Part shown: piece after piece, positions 14,886 through 24,670 of the stretch | Position numbering within the stretch: position 1 is the first letter of the stretch | Layout: every line of letters begins with the position of its first letter | Virus record (IMG/VR): IMGVR_UViG_3300013372_002862 | Span: 1 to 24,776 of that record | Strand: one strand, 5' to 3' | DNA: 24,776 bases | Source of the DNA: a virus | Notes under the pieces: generated by a model | What the model was told of the DNA's origin: nothing | Database searches by the model: none | What the model saw: the letters and a program-made list of their open reading frames with translations, nothing else | Made by a program: the position numbers and the translations under genes

Positions 14886-15500
14886 ATGAATAATTATATT
14901 CTTTACTACTACTTAAGGGAGGACTTTTGTTCTCCCTTTTATGTTGGTTATGGTCGTCCAAGAAGGATTAATTCTAGACATTCTAGAAGAAATGGTGCGG
15001 AACTTTTACCACCCAAAGAAAGAAGATGGGTTGTTAAATCTGGTTTATCTAAAGAAGAAGCAATAGAACTTGAGATAAAACATATTGCACTTTGGAAAAG
15101 AGAGTGTGATGGTGGAGTTTTATTGAATCAAAATCTTGGTGGGGAGGGGAAACCTAGAGGACAAAAAACAAAAGGATTTTCTGGAAGAAAGCATAGCGAA
15201 GAAGCAAAGAAAAGAATAAGTGAAAAGGTTGCTGGTAAAAATAATCCAAGATATGGAATTAAACTTTCGCAAGAAATAAAAACTAAAATAAGTCAAAATA
15301 GAACTCCACAGTTTGGGAAAGATAATCCAAACTCTAAAACTTGGAAAATTACTTCTCCAGAAAATAAAGAATATGTTATTGTTGGTGGATTGAAAGAGTT
15401 TTGCAAATCTCAAAATATTTCTTATGCCACTATGAACGCGGCAATACTTTATGAAAGAAAAGGACCGAGAAAAAATGGATGGTCAATTGAGAAAATTTAG
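14886..15500 (+). CDS. GIY-YIG homing endonuclease with NUMOD3 repeats (Seg-like)
   Basis: A 204-aa free-standing homing endonuclease of the T4 Seg/I-TevI type, which cuts phage DNA lacking the gene and spreads by repair. The GIY-YIG core lies in residues 4-90: YYY at 7-9 in the GIY place, YVG at 19-21 in the YIG place, R26/R27, the catalytic Glu in EEAIELEIKHIALW (about E63), and LLNQNLGGEGKP. Two NUMOD3-like DNA-binding motifs follow (GFSGRKHSEEAKKRISEK, then GIKLSQEIKTKIS). The C-terminal 50 residues form a NUMOD1/helix-turn-helix-like domain (WKITSPENKEYVIVGGLKEF). It sits directly behind nrdB, a common homing target. The start region is controlled by an unusual hairpin leader. Confidence 0.93.
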   Translation: MNNYILYYYLREDFCSPFYVGYGRPRRINSRHSRRNGAELLPPKERRWVVKSGLSKEEAIELEIKHIALWKRECDGGVLLNQNLGGEGKPRGQKTKGFSGRKHSEEAKKRISEKVAGKNNPRYGIKLSQEIKTKISQNRTPQFGKDNPNSKTWKITSPENKEYVIVGGLKEFCKSQNISYATMNAAILYERKGPRKNGWSIEKI

Positions 15501-19002: not shown

Positions 19003-19027
19003 AAAGAGGGTTTCGACCCTCTTTTTT
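19003..19027 (+). terminator. Rho-independent terminator between convergent genes
   Basis: AAAGAGGGT (19003-19011) pairs with ACCCTCTTT (19016-19024) around a TTCG loop and runs into T's on the plus strand. It lies between the plus-strand 559-aa gene and the minus-strand gene ending at 19029. On the minus strand the trailing tract is only CTCTTT, so it acts best on the plus strand. Confidence 0.9.
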
Positions 19028-19028
19028 A

Positions 19029-19370
19029 TTATCTTGTGATTGTTTTTTTAACCAATGCAGTTCCTTCAACAACTCTTGTTGTAGTTCCATCCGGTTTTTT
19101 CAGAAGTAAATCATAAAAATATTTTCCTGGTTTTATTGTTGAACTTATTGCAGCACTGAGAAGAAGTTTAACTCTACCCGTTGTTCTATCACTACCAAAT
19201 TCTATTGTAAAATCAGCACTTTTTGATGAAGATTCATATCTTTTCAATTGGGCACATCCTTCATACCCAGTCAAATTAAGAGAACTATTAGTTTGACTAT
19301 CTTCCAATAAGAAAGATTGTTCAAAATCTGTTCCCGTATGAATAACAATATTACTAACGTATACAGTCAT
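19029..19370 (-). CDS. Beta-rich probable virion/fibre-associated protein, copy 1 (113 aa)
   Basis: A 113-aa protein starting MTVYVSNIVIHTGTDFEQSF, with alternating strand patterns, an NLTGY turn and a DRTTGRVKLLLSAAISSTIK segment, ending in a strand VVEGTALVKK. It is clearly homologous to the neighbouring minus-strand gene at 19393-19737 along its whole length. The pattern (VTL/DTGTDF, NLTG, KPGxYxYDLLL) is that of small beta-sandwich domains found on phage fibres or baseplates, such as BppU-type N-terminal domains; this is inference. It has a late-promoter match upstream on the minus strand. Confidence 0.83.
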   Translation of the reverse strand: MTVYVSNIVIHTGTDFEQSFLLEDSQTNSSLNLTGYEGCAQLKRYESSSKSADFTIEFGSDRTTGRVKLLLSAAISSTIKPGKYFYDLLLKKPDGTTTRVVEGTALVKKTITR

Positions 19371-19392: not shown

Positions 19393-19737
19393 TTAAAAAC
19401 AACCAGTAGAGATTCCTGCTCTCACTAATACATTTCCTTCAACGCCGATTGCTTTATTGCCATTTGGACGTATTAACAAAACGTCATAAACATATCTTCC
19501 AGGTTTGACAGTTGAAGTAACAGTACTTGCCATTGATATTTGTATTTTTCCATTTGTCCTATCCAAGAATGATACACCAAAACCAACATATGATGATGTA
19601 TCTGGACTTTTTCTCATATAACAACTTGCAGCAAACCCAGTAAGATTTACTGGAAGTCCCCCAGACTGTTCAAGTTCAAATATTTCACTAAAATCGTCAT
19701 TCGTGTCAATTACAAGATTTCTTACATATACTGACAT
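19393..19737 (-). CDS. Beta-rich probable virion/fibre-associated protein, copy 2 (114 aa)
   Basis: A 114-aa paralogue of the minus-strand neighbour. Both share M(S/T)VYVxNxVI, a following DF, NLTG(F/Y), DRT(N/T)G(K/R), T(S)TxKPG(R/K)YxYDxLL and VEGxxLV. The pair arose by tandem duplication and has diverged. No catalytic motif is visible. A small beta-sandwich on the virion surface or fibre is the best guess from the family look. It has its own late-promoter match (GATAAATA) 23 nt upstream and runs opposite to all other protein genes in the window. Confidence 0.83.
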   Translation of the reverse strand: MSVYVRNLVIDTNDDFSEIFELEQSGGLPVNLTGFAASCYMRKSPDTSSYVGFGVSFLDRTNGKIQISMASTVTSTVKPGRYVYDVLLIRPNGNKAIGVEGNVLVRAGISTGCF

Positions 19738-19852: not shown

Positions 19853-20302
19853 ATGAGTTATGAAAACCCTTGGAGATTCAATGGGGAAATTTTTGAGTCT
19901 TCTGATATTCAAGATTATTTTGGTTTTGTATATCTTATATCTTGTAGTAGTACCAATCGTAAATACTGGGGTAGAAAGTATTTTTGGTCTTTTAGAACTC
20001 CTCCGGGAAAGAAGAGAAAGGTAAGACAAGAATCAGATTGGAAAAAATACTATGGTTCTTGTCCGGAGTTAAAAGAAGATATTAAAAATTATGGGAAGGA
20101 ATATTTTCAGAGAGAGATAATAAGTCTTCATAAAACAAGAGCAGATTGTAACTACGAAGAAACAAAACAGCTTTTCCTAAATAATGTGTTGAAAGAGTCA
20201 CTTGACGATGGAACACCGGCGTTCTATAATAGCAATATTCTAGGACGCTATTTAAGAAAAGATTATGGTAACTTTGGAAGAAACTCTGCAGACAACACAT
20301 GA
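19853..20302 (+). CDS. GIY-YIG family putative endonuclease (149 aa)
   Basis: A 149-aa single-domain GIY-YIG protein of the kind shared by T4-like phages. GFVYLI at 24-29 stands for the GIY strand and KYWGRKYF at 37-44 for the YIG strand with the following Arg/Lys. A basic loop (GKKRKVRQESDWKKYYGS) follows. The helix CNYEETKQLF (99-108) carries the likely catalytic Glu. It has no NUMOD domains, so DNA targeting may be limited to the core. Cleavage activity is inferred from the family. It overlaps the next gene by 38 nt. Two promoters lie upstream. Confidence 0.88.
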   Translation: MSYENPWRFNGEIFESSDIQDYFGFVYLISCSSTNRKYWGRKYFWSFRTPPGKKRKVRQESDWKKYYGSCPELKEDIKNYGKEYFQREIISLHKTRADCNYEETKQLFLNNVLKESLDDGTPAFYNSNILGRYLRKDYGNFGRNSADNT

Positions 20303-20456
20303 TTGGGCACTTGACCGCATTCATACTCTCTGTGACAAAAAATGTATTGAAAATGCCCATGCGATTCAATCTGAATTTAGTGAATGGTTGAATCCGGATA
20401 TTTCAGATCATGATATTTTCTCATTAGAGTTCATAGGAGAGGAAAATGACACTTGA
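20265..20456 (+). CDS. Small acidic hypothetical protein (63 aa)
   Basis: A 63-residue acidic protein (MVTLEETLQTTHDWALDRIH at the start, SDHDIFSLEFIGEENDT at the end). It overlaps the endonuclease gene by 38 nt and the peptidase gene by 11 nt. It has a cysteine pair (LCDKKC) but no complete metal motif. No function is recognised. The nested overlaps support translation as part of the lysis-gene unit. Confidence 0.72.
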   Translation: MVTLEETLQTTHDWALDRIHTLCDKKCIENAHAIQSEFSEWLNPDISDHDIFSLEFIGEENDT

Positions 20457-21117
20457 CCTTCACAACTTTTTTAAGTTTTACGACGACAGCAATTCAAATC
20501 ACGTGGCAGCAGTTCAATGGTTAGAGGATAACCTACCTGCTCAATTCTTAGATGATGCAGAAACTGATTGGATTGGAATTTTCAGAACAAAACCACCAAC
20601 TCCGGAAGTTCTTGCAGTTCCATATTTTAATCAAGTAGATAATTACAGAGATGCACATAGAACTTGCAACAGTTCATCGTGCGCTATGTGCCTTGCTTTC
20701 CTCAAACCAGGAAGCATCAAAGGCGACGATGAATATGTTAAGAAAGTATTTGCGATTGGCGACACGACTGATCACTCCGTACAGACGAAAGTTCTTGCGG
20801 GTTATGGCATTAAGTCACACTTTAGTTACAATCTTTCTTTTGCTGACATTGATAAGAGTCTTGATGCTGGGAAACCTGTTGTTATTGGTATCCTGCATAG
20901 GGGTTCTTTATCTAATCCTACTGGTGGGCACATGTGTGTAGTTATCGGTAAGACTCCCGATGGTAAGGGTTATTATATTAACGATCCATATGGTTCACTC
21001 AACGATAACTATACTGGTCCAGTGACAAATGGTAAAAAAACCATTTATACAAAAGCAGTTCTCAAGCATCGCTGGTGTCCAGGAGGAAATGATGGATGGG
21101 GAAGAATATTCGATTAA
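20446..21117 (+). CDS. C39-like cysteine peptidase with shared N-terminal domain
   Basis: A 223-aa protein in two parts. Residues 3-37 (DLHNFFKFYD, then AVQWLEDNLP) form a domain also found at the start of the lysozyme downstream, 28 of 35 residues identical. Residues about 57-215 are a Peptidase_C39_2-like papain fold: VPYFNQVDN, nucleophile C74 (HRTCNSSSCAM), H162 (GGHMCVVIG) and D180 (YYINDPYG). Such enzymes cut peptides, including peptidoglycan cross-bridges, so a role in lysis or DNA entry is likely. The Shine-Dalgarno AGGAG is next to the start. Confidence 0.88.
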   Translation: MTLDLHNFFKFYDDSNSNHVAAVQWLEDNLPAQFLDDAETDWIGIFRTKPPTPEVLAVPYFNQVDNYRDAHRTCNSSSCAMCLAFLKPGSIKGDDEYVKKVFAIGDTTDHSVQTKVLAGYGIKSHFSYNLSFADIDKSLDAGKPVVIGILHRGSLSNPTGGHMCVVIGKTPDGKGYYINDPYGSLNDNYTGPVTNGKKTIYTKAVLKHRWCPGGNDGWGRIFD

Positions 21118-21229
21118 TTTCAAAAGAAAGATGCTTAAGATCATAAAGGATCTTACAAATAACGGTAAACATAAAGAAGCAAACGACCTTTATCAAAAGT
21201 ATTTCGGAGGACTAAATGGCAAGAATTGA
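21092..21229 (+). CDS. Small helical protein between the two lytic genes (45 aa)
   Basis: The start at 21092 is set by AGGAGG five nt upstream; a neighbouring ATG at 21089 is too close to it. The gene overlaps the peptidase by 26 nt and the lysozyme by 14 nt. The 45-residue product (MDGEEYSINFKRKMLKIIKD at the start) is one or two charged helices ending in LYQKYFGGLNGKN. I do not recognise it. Tight nesting between the peptidase and lysozyme suggests a helper of either. Confidence 0.75.
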   Translation: MDGEEYSINFKRKMLKIIKDLTNNGKHKEANDLYQKYFGGLNGKN

Positions 21230-21887
21230 TTTACATAACTTCTTCAAGTTTTATGACGAGAAGAATCCTAATCACGTTAAAGCGGTTCAATGGTTAGAAG
21301 ATAATCTCCCAGTTAAGTTCTTAGATGACAATGTTGATTGGGCGGAGATTTATAGAGGAAAAAAGGGTAATGCGGCACCAGCATCAGCACCATCTGCTGC
21401 CGCTCCTGTGACGGGTGGTGATGATGTTCCTATGATGGGCATCAAGTTGATCAAAGAGTTTGAAGGATGCCACTTGAAGGCATATCCTGACCCTCTCACC
21501 GGTGGTCTGCCAATCACAATTGGTTGGGGTTCAACTCGTAAGAAAGATGGTTCTGCATTCAAACTTGGTGATCAAATTACCCAACAGGAAGCTGATGAAC
21601 TATTGATCAGTCAGTGTAAGAATCAATTTCTCCCTGCACTTCGTAAGATCCCACATTGGAATGAAATGTCAGATGGAAAAAGAGGCGCTCTGCTCAGCTT
21701 TGCTTATAATCTTGGTGCCGGTTTTTACGGTGGTGATAACTTTAATACTATTACTAAACGCCTGAAGAATAAAGAGTGGGATCTAGTTCCCGATGCTCTT
21801 TATCTCTACCGCAATCCTGGTTCAAATGTTGAGGCAGGTTTAGCACGTAGAAGAAAGGCAGAAGGAGATGCCTGGAAAAAAGGATAA
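21216..21887 (+). CDS. GH24 lysozyme (endolysin) with shared N-terminal domain
   Basis: A 223-aa muramidase. Residues 4-38 repeat the N-terminal domain of the upstream peptidase. An Ala/Pro/Ser linker (about 51-68, NAAPASAPSAAAPV) leads to a GH24 catalytic domain from about 73. The T4 lysozyme triad positions are E83 (KEFEGC), D92 (AYPDP) and T101 (ITIGWGS), with a short insertion (GGLP) between D92 and T101. It cleaves the MurNAc-GlcNAc bond. No signal peptide is present, so release would need a holin unless it is virion-borne. The start has a strong GGAGG, and the stop overlaps a late promoter. Confidence 0.93.
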   Translation: MARIDLHNFFKFYDEKNPNHVKAVQWLEDNLPVKFLDDNVDWAEIYRGKKGNAAPASAPSAAAPVTGGDDVPMMGIKLIKEFEGCHLKAYPDPLTGGLPITIGWGSTRKKDGSAFKLGDQITQQEADELLISQCKNQFLPALRKIPHWNEMSDGKRGALLSFAYNLGAGFYGGDNFNTITKRLKNKEWDLVPDALYLYRNPGSNVEAGLARRRKAEGDAWKKG

Positions 21888-21890
21888 ATA
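21883..21890 (+). promoter_or_regulatory. T4-type late promoter GATAAATA
   Basis: A late-promoter match overlapping the lysozyme stop codon. Transcription would start near 21896 and give a leader of about 135 nt before the ATG at 22031, long enough to hold the 20-bp hairpin. Confidence 0.65.
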
Positions 21891-21942
21891 GTTACAATCA
21901 TTACTGATTCTTGATCTTAACTGGTCTGAATCTACATACTCC

Positions 21943-22026
21943 GAGTCCTCTGTGACTTGGTGAATACTTTACTTTTAAACAACTTAGGTTTGTTTTGTTT
22001 AGTACACACTAAGTCATAGAGGACTT
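21943..22026 (+). promoter_or_regulatory. 20-bp leader hairpin burying the ribosome-binding site
   Basis: Bases 21943-21962 pair with 22007-22026 without a mismatch, with three G-U pairs (21943-22026, 21952-22017, 21959-22010), around a 44-nt loop. Key halves are AGTCCTCTGTGACTT and AAGTCATAGAGGACT. The Shine-Dalgarno AGAGG (22018-22022) lies inside the stem, four bases from the 3' end and eight from the ATG. Only CTTTTATATG follows, so it is not a normal terminator. A translation-control or RNA-stability element is the best reading. Confidence 0.8.
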
Positions 22027-22030
22027 TTAT

Positions 22031-24670
22031 ATGTCTTACGCTACAAAGGCGCTTGCTGCTGCGTCTGCTTTGTTGATGGGTAGTAGTGCAATCGCTGCAC
22101 CCCTTACTTTACAGGGGAACTATGTAAAGATTGGAGTTAACGATGCTGGAACCGTTGGTTCTGGTGGAGCAACTTCTCCTGGTATTCAGTATGATTCAAC
22201 TGGAACTGCAACGTTTAATCCAGCATACGATTACCTGACTCCTGGAAATCCTTTTGAAGGATTTACTGTTAGAGGTAAAGATGGTTCAACTGTTCTTTTC
22301 AACTATTATAATAACAATAATAGTGTTGGAGGAGCACAGATTACTGGAACACTTGTAGATTATTCTGGTGTTTCATATCGCGGATTGACTTATGATAATC
22401 GTGCCGTATGGTCTGGTTCAAAAACAGAGTTTAATATAGAGCACGACTATCGTTTCAATGATAATCAACAGTTTGTTGATATCAATACTCGTTTAGAGTT
22501 TTTGATTAATGTTCCTACCCTTTACTTTGGTAGATTTACAGATCCTGATGCAAGAGCAGCAGCAGGAGATAGTTCTAGAACAGATAATACTAGAGGATAT
22601 GCTGGTGGTATTCCAGCAACCAACGTTGTCCTTTCCGAAGCACTTGTATCAAAGTACGCATTAGGTTTGTTCACAGGTCAAGTTGGTGGAGTAAACTCTG
22701 GAATCAGTGCTGGTTGGTCCACAAACCCAGAAGATTATTATAACGGAACTGATGGTGGTCCAAGCGGAGACCATACCATTGGTCTTGGATTTATGTTCTC
22801 TGGTGTTAATGCAGGGGACATCATTAACGTTCAGTATGCATATATCTTTGGACCTTCTGCGTTTGCTGCTGGATCTGGCGCAGTTTCTGGTGGTGCTGGC
22901 GGATCTACACCATCAACCTTTACTGTTACTGACGTAGGTGCTGCTTCTGCTCCAACTGCACCTGCTCCTACAACTCCCCCTGCACCAACAGTCACAGGAA
23001 CTTCCACATCGGATTCTGTATCAACCTCATCTTCATCATCAACAAGAACTGAAACTTCTTATGTAACAAGAACAGTTTCTTCAACAGATGCTGATGGAAA
23101 TCCAGTTGTAAGAACTTATACTGATACAGTTGTAACAACCATTCCAGTTACTACAACAACCACTGTTACAACTCCTGTTACCACAACAACTTACTCTGAT
23201 AGTTCTACTACATCTTCGAGTGGAACTCCTGTAACTACAACTTCTTCTGTTGATGGAACAGGAACTTCTGTTGTTTCTGCAACTGTATTGGATTCAACCG
23301 CAGTTACAAGAAATGTAACAACTTCTGCGGATACATCATCTTCAAGAACAGGATCCAGAACAGTTACCAGAACTGTAACTGATACTGATGCATCTGGAAA
23401 TCCAAGAACTAGAACTTATACTGATACTATTCTGGATACTACACCAGTCACCACAACTACAACATCATCCACACCTATAACCACGATTTATTATGCAGAT
23501 GGTTCTACATCTGTTGTAAATGGAACAACTACAACCACATCTACTTCTGCTGATGGAACTGTAAGTTCTTCCACGATTGCGACTGCTCTTGATGCAACCG
23601 CAGTTACAAGACCTTCTGTATCATCTTCATCAGTTCAGTCCACAACTCTTCCAGTTATAAATGTAACTTTGACTGAACACGCTGCATCTGAGAACAAAGG
23701 AGTTCAAAAGATTGCAAGACATCATACAACAACTACCACAACTCCAATGGTAAAAACTGTTGTAACCACCCCAGTTACAACCACCTCTTATTCTGCTGGA
23801 ACTGAGACTGTAACTAACGGAACACCTGTTACAACTTACGAACTCTGGAATGATGTTGGTATCTCACACGCATATGATAACTTGTTTGGTCGTGTAGATC
23901 AGTTAGAAGTTCTTGACGGAATCAATGATGGTATTAATGGACTTCTCAATCACGAACCAACAGCAGGTAATCAGAGATTAAGAGTATTTGAGAACAATAG
24001 ATTCGTTCAATCCTACAATGCTGATGCTTATAAAGCAGATTCCAAGATCTTCGGTGGTGGTTTTGAGTTTGATGTAACCAAAGGTTGGACAGTTGGATTC
24101 CAGTATAATAGAGTCAACATAAACCTCAATGGTGTTGATTCAAGAACACAACAGAGCAAAGATCACTTCGGTGTATTCAGTGAGATTAGGGGTAATACTT
24201 TAACCCTGAATACAAATGCTGCGATTGCAAACAGCAACTATAAGTACAACAGAACCGTAGAAGGTGTCTTTAATAATGAAGGATCAACCACTGGTTCTGA
24301 GTGGTGGGTATCTAATAGACTTTATATGCACGTAACCAAATGGTTGCATCCATTCTTCGGATATACTGTTCAGAATGTAAGAAGAAATGCTTACAATGAA
24401 ACTGGTTCTATTCAATCTGCAAGAGCAGTTGAATCTCATAACCAAACTACACATATTGGTGAGGCAGGAGTTAAGTTAGAAACTCGTTTTGGTGGTAAGA
24501 AAAATAACCTCTTTGGGGTTAGTGTAGAGGGTGCTTATGGAACTGATAGTTCTTATGGTGTAAGTGCTTCTGTTGACTATAAAGAGATTTTGTATGTTGA
24601 AGGTTCTCACGGTGTAAACAACGGAGTTACTAACAATTCTATTGCTGGTAAGATCAAGTTTAGGTTCTAA
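22031..24670 (+). CDS. Secreted Ser/Thr-repeat protein with C-terminal beta-barrel (probable outer-membrane protein)
   Basis: An 879-aa protein with an export signal, rare for a phage gene. Residues 1-22 form a Sec signal peptide: basic start (MSYATK), hydrophobic core (ALAAASALLMG) and cleavage at A-I-A before residue 23. Residues about 24-300 are a beta-rich domain (LQGNYVKIGVNDAGTVGSGG). Residues about 310-640 are extremely Ser/Thr-rich repeats with a 100-residue period. Residues about 669-879 are alternating amphipathic strands (GGGFEFDVTKGWTVGFQYNR onward) ending KIKFRF, with the terminal Phe expected for BAM-inserted outer-membrane barrels. The plan resembles an autotransporter. Superinfection exclusion, lysis or virion attachment are possible roles; none is shown. 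It follows the lysozyme and a hairpin leader. Confidence 0.85.
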   Translation: MSYATKALAAASALLMGSSAIAAPLTLQGNYVKIGVNDAGTVGSGGATSPGIQYDSTGTATFNPAYDYLTPGNPFEGFTVRGKDGSTVLFNYYNNNNSVGGAQITGTLVDYSGVSYRGLTYDNRAVWSGSKTEFNIEHDYRFNDNQQFVDINTRLEFLINVPTLYFGRFTDPDARAAAGDSSRTDNTRGYAGGIPATNVVLSEALVSKYALGLFTGQVGGVNSGISAGWSTNPEDYYNGTDGGPSGDHTIGLGFMFSGVNAGDIINVQYAYIFGPSAFAAGSGAVSGGAGGSTPSTFTVTDVGAASAPTAPAPTTPPAPTVTGTSTSDSVSTSSSSSTRTETSYVTRTVSSTDADGNPVVRTYTDTVVTTIPVTTTTTVTTPVTTTTYSDSSTTSSSGTPVTTTSSVDGTGTSVVSATVLDSTAVTRNVTTSADTSSSRTGSRTVTRTVTDTDASGNPRTRTYTDTILDTTPVTTTTTSSTPITTIYYADGSTSVVNGTTTTTSTSADGTVSSSTIATALDATAVTRPSVSSSSVQSTTLPVINVTLTEHAASENKGVQKIARHHTTTTTTPMVKTVVTTPVTTTSYSAGTETVTNGTPVTTYELWNDVGISHAYDNLFGRVDQLEVLDGINDGINGLLNHEPTAGNQRLRVFENNRFVQSYNADAYKADSKIFGGGFEFDVTKGWTVGFQYNRVNINLNGVDSRTQQSKDHFGVFSEIRGNTLTLNTNAAIANSNYKYNRTVEGVFNNEGSTTGSEWWVSNRLYMHVTKWLHPFFGYTVQNVRRNAYNETGSIQSARAVESHNQTTHIGEAGVKLETRFGGKKNNLFGVSVEGAYGTDSSYGVSASVDYKEILYVEGSHGVNNGVTNNSIAGKIKFRF
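23053..23650 (+). repeat. Two diverged 300-bp tandem repeats in the Ser/Thr-rich region
   Basis: Two copies, starting near 23053 and 23353, are exactly 300 bp out of phase: GATGCTGATGGAAATCCA at 23087 matches GATGCATCTGGAAATCCA at 23387. Each encodes TVxxTDADGNP-type, RTYTDT, PVTTTTT and TAVTR landmarks. A shorter third copy is visible near 23725 (TTTTTTPMVKTVVTTPVTTT). The repeats are in frame. Confidence 0.8.

What the first reader, a model, noticed from the sequence alone, without database searches (positions are those of the whole stretch)
21943..22026. 20-bp leader hairpin burying the ribosome-binding site of the secreted protein
Two arms of 20 bases pair without mismatch, with three G-U pairs, around a 44-nt loop, and the AGAGG Shine-Dalgarno lies within the stem. 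Unlike the homing-endonuclease case, the nearest late promoter (21883) is upstream of both arms, so even late RNA would fold. Something else must open it (a phage or host factor, a ribosome, temperature, processing), or it keeps expression of a toxic export protein low.
Basis: partly seen in the sequence, partly recalled or inferred. Interest (0 to 1): 0.86.

Follow-up and report, generated by a model that had tools for sequence, protein, structure and literature searches.

The report
Conserved RNA switch hiding start site
In viruses of freshwater cyanobacteria, the messenger RNA of a surface-barrel protein begins with a long, evolutionarily conserved RNA hairpin that buries the place where translation starts, and one strand of it can also fold on itself, so the leader looks like a switch that keeps the gene shut until something opens it.

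Summary
The hairpin is real, at the stated coordinates: 20 uninterrupted pairs (3 G-U), 44-nt loop. It is the longest such helix in the window; 20 shuffles never exceeded 18. Relatives of the downstream autotransporter-like gene gave 57 distinct leaders from T4-like cyanophages, and an equivalent hairpin was found in all, weakest in L088. In 39 aligned leaders, 98% of structure cells pair and 22 of 46 pairs show changes on both sides (shuffled 3.5; 0/500). G-U outnumbers A-C 127 to 8, so the plus-strand RNA folds.

Two corrections. The Shine-Dalgarno is not the conserved target: 20 of 57 leaders lack one, yet the helix still ends a few bases before the ATG. And the 5' arm has a second conserved partner: it folds locally (Pa, 21941-21947/21954-21960), excluding the long helix; Pa covaries too. 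A second leader class has the same logic without detectable sequence similarity.

The late promoter lies upstream of both arms, never between them, so late mRNA should be made closed; folding favours the closed state by 13-29 kcal/mol. Most likely a translational lock with a bistable 5' arm. The opener is unknown; host RNase III is my best guess (about 30%). No Rfam family matches. Transcript ends and translation are untested.

The parts
21883..21890 (+). Late promoter motif GATAAATA, just after the lysozyme stop codon region; transcript start expected a few bases downstream (about 21896, inferred)
   Evidence: NATAAATA at -101 to -150 from the ATG in most of the 57 leaders, a one-base variant (ACTAAATA) in several, none seen between the arms; NATAAATA is the reported cyanophage late promoter (PMC2984593)
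21906..21932 (+). P1, upstream hairpin (21906-21910/21928-21932 and 21913-21916/21923-21926)
   Evidence: Helices 1 and 2 of alignment A9: 99% of cells paired, 6 of 9 pairs with changes on both sides
21934..21938 (+). P0 5' strand ACAUA, pairs with UAUGU 22030-22034, which contains the start codon
   Evidence: Helix 3 of A9: 98.4% of cells paired, only one-sided changes; window fold
21941..21960 (+). Pa, local hairpin CCGAGUC-CUCUGU-GACUUGG (21941-21947/21954-21960), mutually exclusive with P2
   Evidence: Prefix folds; covariation; 5' arm region folds better than shuffles (p<=0.05) in 32 of 57 leaders, 3' arm in 0 of 57
21943..21962 (+). P2 5' arm
21965..22004 (+). P3, imperfect apical hairpin within the loop
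   Evidence: Window fold and CM structure; mostly invariant, a few changes on both sides
22007..22026 (+). P2 3' arm, ending 4 nt before the ATG
22018..22023 (+). Shine-Dalgarno-like AGAGGA inside the 3' arm; not conserved across the family
   Evidence: Present in 37 of 57 leaders, absent in 20
22031..24670 (+). Regulated gene: 879 aa, N-terminal signal-peptide-like stretch, Ser/Thr-rich middle, C-terminal barrel-like domain ending KIKFRF
   Evidence: ORF; one of ten relatives matches Pfam PF03797 Autotransporter at 4.6e-13, the window protein itself does not reach the threshold; weak PDB match to EstA, E 0.12

Best explanation
It is a cis-acting RNA lock in the late mRNA of a phage autotransporter-like outer-membrane protein. 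A late transcript starting near 21896 folds into P1, then the 5' arm folds locally as Pa, then the strand next to the start codon is made and displaces Pa to form the long helix P2 (topped by P3), with P0 also pairing the AUG. In that state the 30S subunit cannot bind, so the mRNA is made closed. Pa is a conserved competitor of P2: it holds the 5' arm before its partner exists and can recapture it once P2 is opened. Shown here: P2, P1 and Pa are conserved RNA structures, and P2 and Pa cannot coexist. Inferred from position and energies: translation is blocked. Inferred, weakly (about 30%): the opener is host RNase III cutting the roughly 20-bp helix, as at phage lambda N and T7 leaders (general knowledge); a phage or host RNA-binding protein or helicase is the main alternative.
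For: Helix and fold significance. 57 distinct leaders upstream of homologous genes, each with an equivalent helix by duplex folding, 17-29 pairs. A9: 98.0% of cells paired, 22 of 46 pairs with changes on both sides against 3.5 in shuffles, 0/500; slid partners 29-46% paired. Pa: 90.8% of cells, 9 cells changed on both sides against 2.4, 0/500; on an alignment fitted to P2 rather than Pa, 94.0% against 90.6%, 0/500. P2 has 127 G-U pairs against 8 A-C mismatches, as expected of the + strand RNA. A covariance model from 18 leaders recovers full length the divergent L008, L017, L083, L089, L002, L082, L098, L099 and, more weakly, L108, none of them in the model, and finds one sense-strand leader per record in 8 of 10 phage records. 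The leader persists where the upstream ORF found is not the lysozyme (L008, L082, L083, L088, L104). Late promoter upstream of both arms. Closed state favoured by 12.8-28.7 kcal/mol. Cyanobacteria carry 1-3 RNase III genes and Synechococcus PCC 7002 enzymes cut many E. coli RNase III substrates (PMC10989914).
Against: No experiment: transcript ends, RNA structure in the cell and translation are unknown. No opener is identified. Energies come from a model at 37 C. Pa is shifted in the alignment for the divergent leaders and its covariation rests partly on hand-set strands (A5) and on few independent events; in class A its 5' strand also belongs to P2, although the two outer pairs do not. Class B (13 leaders) was not recovered by the covariance model, and its anti-structure rests on one-sided changes.
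Confidence: 0.68

Rival explanations
1. T4 gene e / soc / I-TevI type control: the hairpin silences only read-through transcripts, and late transcripts start inside the structure, lack the 5' arm and are translated freely.
For: Same position and effect in T4, where early transcripts of e, soc, 49 and I-TevI are closed this way (PMC3014915).
Against: In T4 gene e the late promoters sit in the region encoding the 5' strand; here NATAAATA is upstream of both arms in nearly all leaders and no such motif was seen between the arms.
Confidence: 0.12
2. Delayed folding as in the MS2 maturation gene: Pa keeps the 3' arm free for a short time so that only nascent mRNA is translated.
For: Pa forms first, P2 replaces it; MS2 and hok precedents described in PMC6733600.
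Against: In equilibrium folds of growing transcripts P2 displaces Pa at about nt 118-120, before the AUG is made, and the direct-path barrier estimates are low, about 2-10 kcal/mol. No true kinetic simulation was run.
Confidence: 0.1
3. Terminator/antiterminator attenuator: P2 plus the following U-run ends transcription just before the ATG, Pa allows read-through.
For: At least 4 T in the last 6 bases before the ATG in 56 of 57 leaders, against 9 of 85 and 5 of 63 genes in stretches of DSL-LC02 and DSL-LC03; mutually exclusive helices fit an attenuator.
Against: The U-run is short and often interrupted (UUCUU, UUUCU); the terminator scan does not list the site, while it lists a classic one at 19003-19024; the 44-nt loop is unlike the terminators seen nearby; the stem keeps a fixed distance to the ATG and stays with the downstream gene when the upstream ORF differs.
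Confidence: 0.12
4. A factor-sensing switch: a phage or host protein, RNA or small molecule binds Pa or the P2/P3 internal loop during transcription and holds the leader open.
For: Pa is conserved in addition to P2; several divergent Pa loops are UUCG or UACG closed by C-G (L017, L082, L008).
Against: No ligand, no binding protein, and internal-loop sequence conservation may be mere relatedness; the closed state is far more stable than the open one.
Confidence: 0.2
5. Constitutive damping: the hairpin only keeps expression of an abundant late gene low, with no opening event.
For: Needs no unknown factor; very stable closed state.
Against: Does not account for conservation of Pa; a weak start site would do the same more simply.
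Confidence: 0.15

Closest known systems
T4 genes e, soc, 49 and I-TevI leaders (RBS sequestered in an RNA helix)
   Same: T4-like phage; start region buried in a long-range helix; conserved in relatives of gene e; adjacent to a late promoter motif
   Different: Here the late promoter is upstream of both arms, so late mRNA carries the whole structure; there is an alternative hairpin of the 5' arm; the Shine-Dalgarno is not conserved; the gene encodes an autotransporter-like protein
MS2 maturation-gene leader and hok / aapA type I toxin mRNAs (metastable hairpin before an inert final fold)
   Same: A local hairpin forms first and is replaced by a more stable long-range helix that hides the start site
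   Different: P2 is predicted to form before the AUG exists; no antitoxin or 3'-end processing seen; double-stranded DNA phage late mRNA
Phage lambda N and cIII leaders (RNase III and alternative folds control translation); from general knowledge, not read here
   Same: Long stem near the start site; alternative structures
   Different: No cleavage data; sequence unrelated; host is a cyanobacterium
Translational riboswitch expression platforms
   Same: Three-strand logic: one strand pairs either upstream or with the start region
   Different: No aptamer or ligand found; no Rfam match

Membership tests
T4 e/soc/I-TevI type RBS-sequestering leader | Start region paired in a helix conserved in relatives | tested here: met
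T4 e/soc/I-TevI type RBS-sequestering leader | Late promoter within or downstream of the 5' strand, so that late mRNA escapes | tested here: not met
   NATAAATA upstream of both arms, none between; transcript starts not mapped
MS2-type delayed folding | Metastable local hairpin precedes the final fold | tested here: met
   In silico only
MS2-type delayed folding | Start site exposed for a useful time while the metastable hairpin lasts | tested here: inconclusive
   Equilibrium prefix folds argue against it; no kinetic simulation
RNase III-controlled leader | Double-stranded stretch of about 20 bp or more near the start site | tested here: met
   20 perfect bp in the window; 17-29 pairs in 57 leaders, several with bulges or mismatches
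RNase III-controlled leader | Cleavage by RNase III changes translation | not testable with these tools
   Needs infected-cell RNA or in vitro cleavage
Intrinsic terminator / attenuator | Short G+C-rich stem with small loop followed by a U-tract | tested here: not met
   Not listed by the scan; a U-run is present but short and interrupted
Any described RNA family (Rfam 15) | Match at the gathering score | tested here: not met
   Best matches are far below their gathering scores
RNA thermometer | Marginally stable helix that melts at physiological temperature | tested here: not met
   Closed state 12.8-28.7 kcal/mol below open at 37 C; no melting computed
Autotransporter (downstream protein) | C-terminal autotransporter beta-domain PF03797 | tested here: inconclusive

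The most novel reading that the evidence does not exclude
A trans-factor-responsive RNA switch in the late mRNA of lytic T4-like cyanophages, in which a conserved anti-sequestor hairpin and a start-site-sequestering helix compete for one strand, found in two leader classes without detectable sequence similarity, that times production of a phage outer-membrane barrel protein.
Probability: 0.22. Interest if true: 0.82.

Novelty: new variant of a known kind. Interest (0 to 1): 0.62.

Why it matters
Start-site hairpins in T4-like phages are understood as brakes on early RNA that late RNA escapes. This one should be carried by the late RNA itself, so it poses a concrete question: what opens it? It is a conserved RNA structure with compensatory changes in dozens of freshwater cyanophage leaders, absent from Rfam, attached to an unstudied phage autotransporter-like gene family, and its predictions are testable with simple reporters.

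Tried and rejected
RNAalifold on the 44-leader MAFFT alignment A3 gave no pairs, because the divergent leaders and arm-length changes are misaligned; replaced by stem-only alignment A5 and the model-fitted A9. DNA-level palindrome or binding site: rejected, as arm sequences change while pairing stays and G-U exceeds A-C. Simple terminator of the upstream lysozyme gene: disfavoured, as the leader stays with the downstream gene. Conserved Shine-Dalgarno burial: rejected. A complementary RNA elsewhere in the window: the only 11-base complements of the loop are its own antisense strand and one chance site at 22671. Host relatives of the gene: none confirmed in genome contigs by pattern search. Self-folding of the 3' arm as a mirror of Pa: not significant in any of 57 leaders. 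One count on class B failed because the structure string had the wrong length; it was replaced by reading the strands.

Full report
Observation. The arms 21943-21962 and 22007-22026 pair over 20 bases without mismatch, with three G-U pairs, around 44 nt. With G-U allowed and span up to 200 it is the longest uninterrupted helix in the window; the next is 16 bp, and 20 Markov shuffles of the window gave maxima of 14-18. The leader folds at -55.3 kcal/mol against a shuffled mean of -29.7 (z -7.4). AGAGGA at 22018-22023 is in the 3' arm, and UAUGU 22030-22034, which includes the AUG, pairs with ACAUA 21934-21938.

Context. The window is a T4-like cyanophage fragment with DNA polymerase, RecA-like, helicase, ribonucleotide reductase, C39 peptidase and lysozyme ORFs. 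The gene behind the leader encodes 879 aa with a signal-peptide-like start and a C-terminal barrel-like region. The window protein matches no Pfam family, but one of ten relatives matches Autotransporter PF03797 at 4.6e-13, and the annotated DSL-LC03 relative is called autotransporter outer membrane beta-barrel domain protein. Relatives were found in IMG/VR contigs and in Synechococcus phages DSL-LC02 and DSL-LC03; none was confirmed in bacterial genomes.

Conservation of the long helix. From these loci 57 distinct leaders with a start codon were extracted. By duplex folding all have a long-range helix ending 0-5 nt before the ATG, with 17-29 pairs including P3-side pairs; L088 is the weakest at -12.5 kcal/mol. 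On 22 distinct stem sets the inner nine pairs of P2 are 89.3% paired, with 12 two-sided changes against 2.9 in shuffles. In a model-fitted alignment of 39 leaders 98.0% of cells pair and 22 of 46 pairs have changes on both sides against 3.5 in shuffles, 0 of 500; slid versions reach at most 46% paired. That alignment leans towards the structure because it was fitted to it, and shuffles do not correct for relatedness, so the strength should be read with that in mind. Leaders that were not in the model (L008, L017, L083, L089, L098, L099, L002, L082 and weakly L108) were recovered full length. In ten phage records the model finds one sense-strand leader in each of eight, and none in S-PM2 or S-CREM1. 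P2 holds 127 G-U pairs against 8 A-C mismatches, which points to the + strand RNA rather than to DNA or the opposite strand.

The Shine-Dalgarno is not what is kept. A Shine-Dalgarno-like word is present in 37 leaders and absent in 20, namely all 13 of class B and seven others, although the helix is still there. A T-rich stretch before the ATG is nearly universal (at least 4 T of 6 in 56 of 57), against 9 of 85 and 5 of 63 genes in two phage stretches.

A second partner for the 5' arm. Folding of the leader without its 3' arm shows a local hairpin in the 5' arm, CCGAGUC-CUCUGU-GACUUGG in the window. The 5' arm region folds better than its shuffles (p at most 0.05) in 32 of 57 leaders, the 3' arm region in none, so this is not just a by-product of palindromic arms. 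Its seven pairs are 90.8% kept, with 9 two-sided changes against 2.4, and 94.0% against 90.6% on the alignment fitted to P2. The two outer C-G pairs lie outside P2. In L008 the 5' strand of Pa lies outside P2 altogether and closes a UACG loop with nine pairs; L017 and L082 have UUCG loops. In class B the 5' arm GAGUUG pairs instead with an upstream strand that varies (CAACUC, CAGCUC, CGACUC) but keeps pairing, and the covariance model of the other class finds none of the four class B leaders that were searched. The same three-strand logic thus occurs in two leader classes without detectable sequence similarity; common descent cannot be excluded.

Mechanism. NATAAATA, the reported cyanophage late promoter (PMC2984593), lies upstream of both arms in most leaders, with a one-base variant in several, and not between the arms. 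Late RNA should therefore carry the whole structure, unlike T4 gene e, where late promoters remove the 5' strand (PMC3014915). The closed state is favoured by 12.8-28.7 kcal/mol, with direct-path barriers of about 2-10 kcal/mol. In folds of growing transcripts Pa dominates from about nt 66 to 114, then P2 takes over before the AUG exists, which argues against a simple MS2-like translation window, although no kinetic simulation was done. I therefore read the leader as a translational lock made closed, with Pa as a conserved competitor that holds or recaptures the 5' arm. The opener is not identified. RNase III is favoured only because the helix is long and not constrained in sequence, and because cyanobacteria have RNase III enzymes that cut many E. 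coli substrates (PMC10989914).

Novelty. No Rfam family matches. A few searches of the held open-access papers turned up no description of this leader, but that library is incomplete. I rate it a new variant of the known phage start-site-sequestering leader.

Noticed in passing
20446-20620 and 21216-21400: The C39 peptidase and the lysozyme begin with the same module (LHNFFKFYDxxNxNHVxAVQWLEDNLP); PHROG 3617 covers both proteins in different parts, so they look like halves of one fused protein of other phages.
   Followed up: partly
19003-19024: Classic intrinsic terminator AAAGAGGGTTTCGACCCTCTTT followed by T-rich sequence, useful as a contrast to the leader hairpin.
   Followed up: no
19029-19370 and 19393-19737 (minus strand): Two neighbouring similar ORFs; the second matches PHROG 3304 (L-shaped tail fiber protein assembly).
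   Followed up: no
14886-15500 and 19853-20302: Two ORFs that look like GIY-YIG type homing endonucleases (judged by eye).
   Followed up: no
L027:3995: This gene is about 84% identical in protein to the window gene over residues 2-457 yet has a class B leader, so leader and signal-peptide start may be exchanged as a unit.
   Followed up: partly
L016:160-230: A GACCCCT..AGGGGTC hairpin with a T-run precedes a small ORF with a signal-peptide-like start and a Shine-Dalgarno AAAGGAG: an ordinary terminator and start in the same phages.
   Followed up: no
L096, L097: Distant relatives of the barrel (23-28% identity) have ordinary purine-rich ribosome sites and were not seen to carry the hairpin.
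   Followed up: partly
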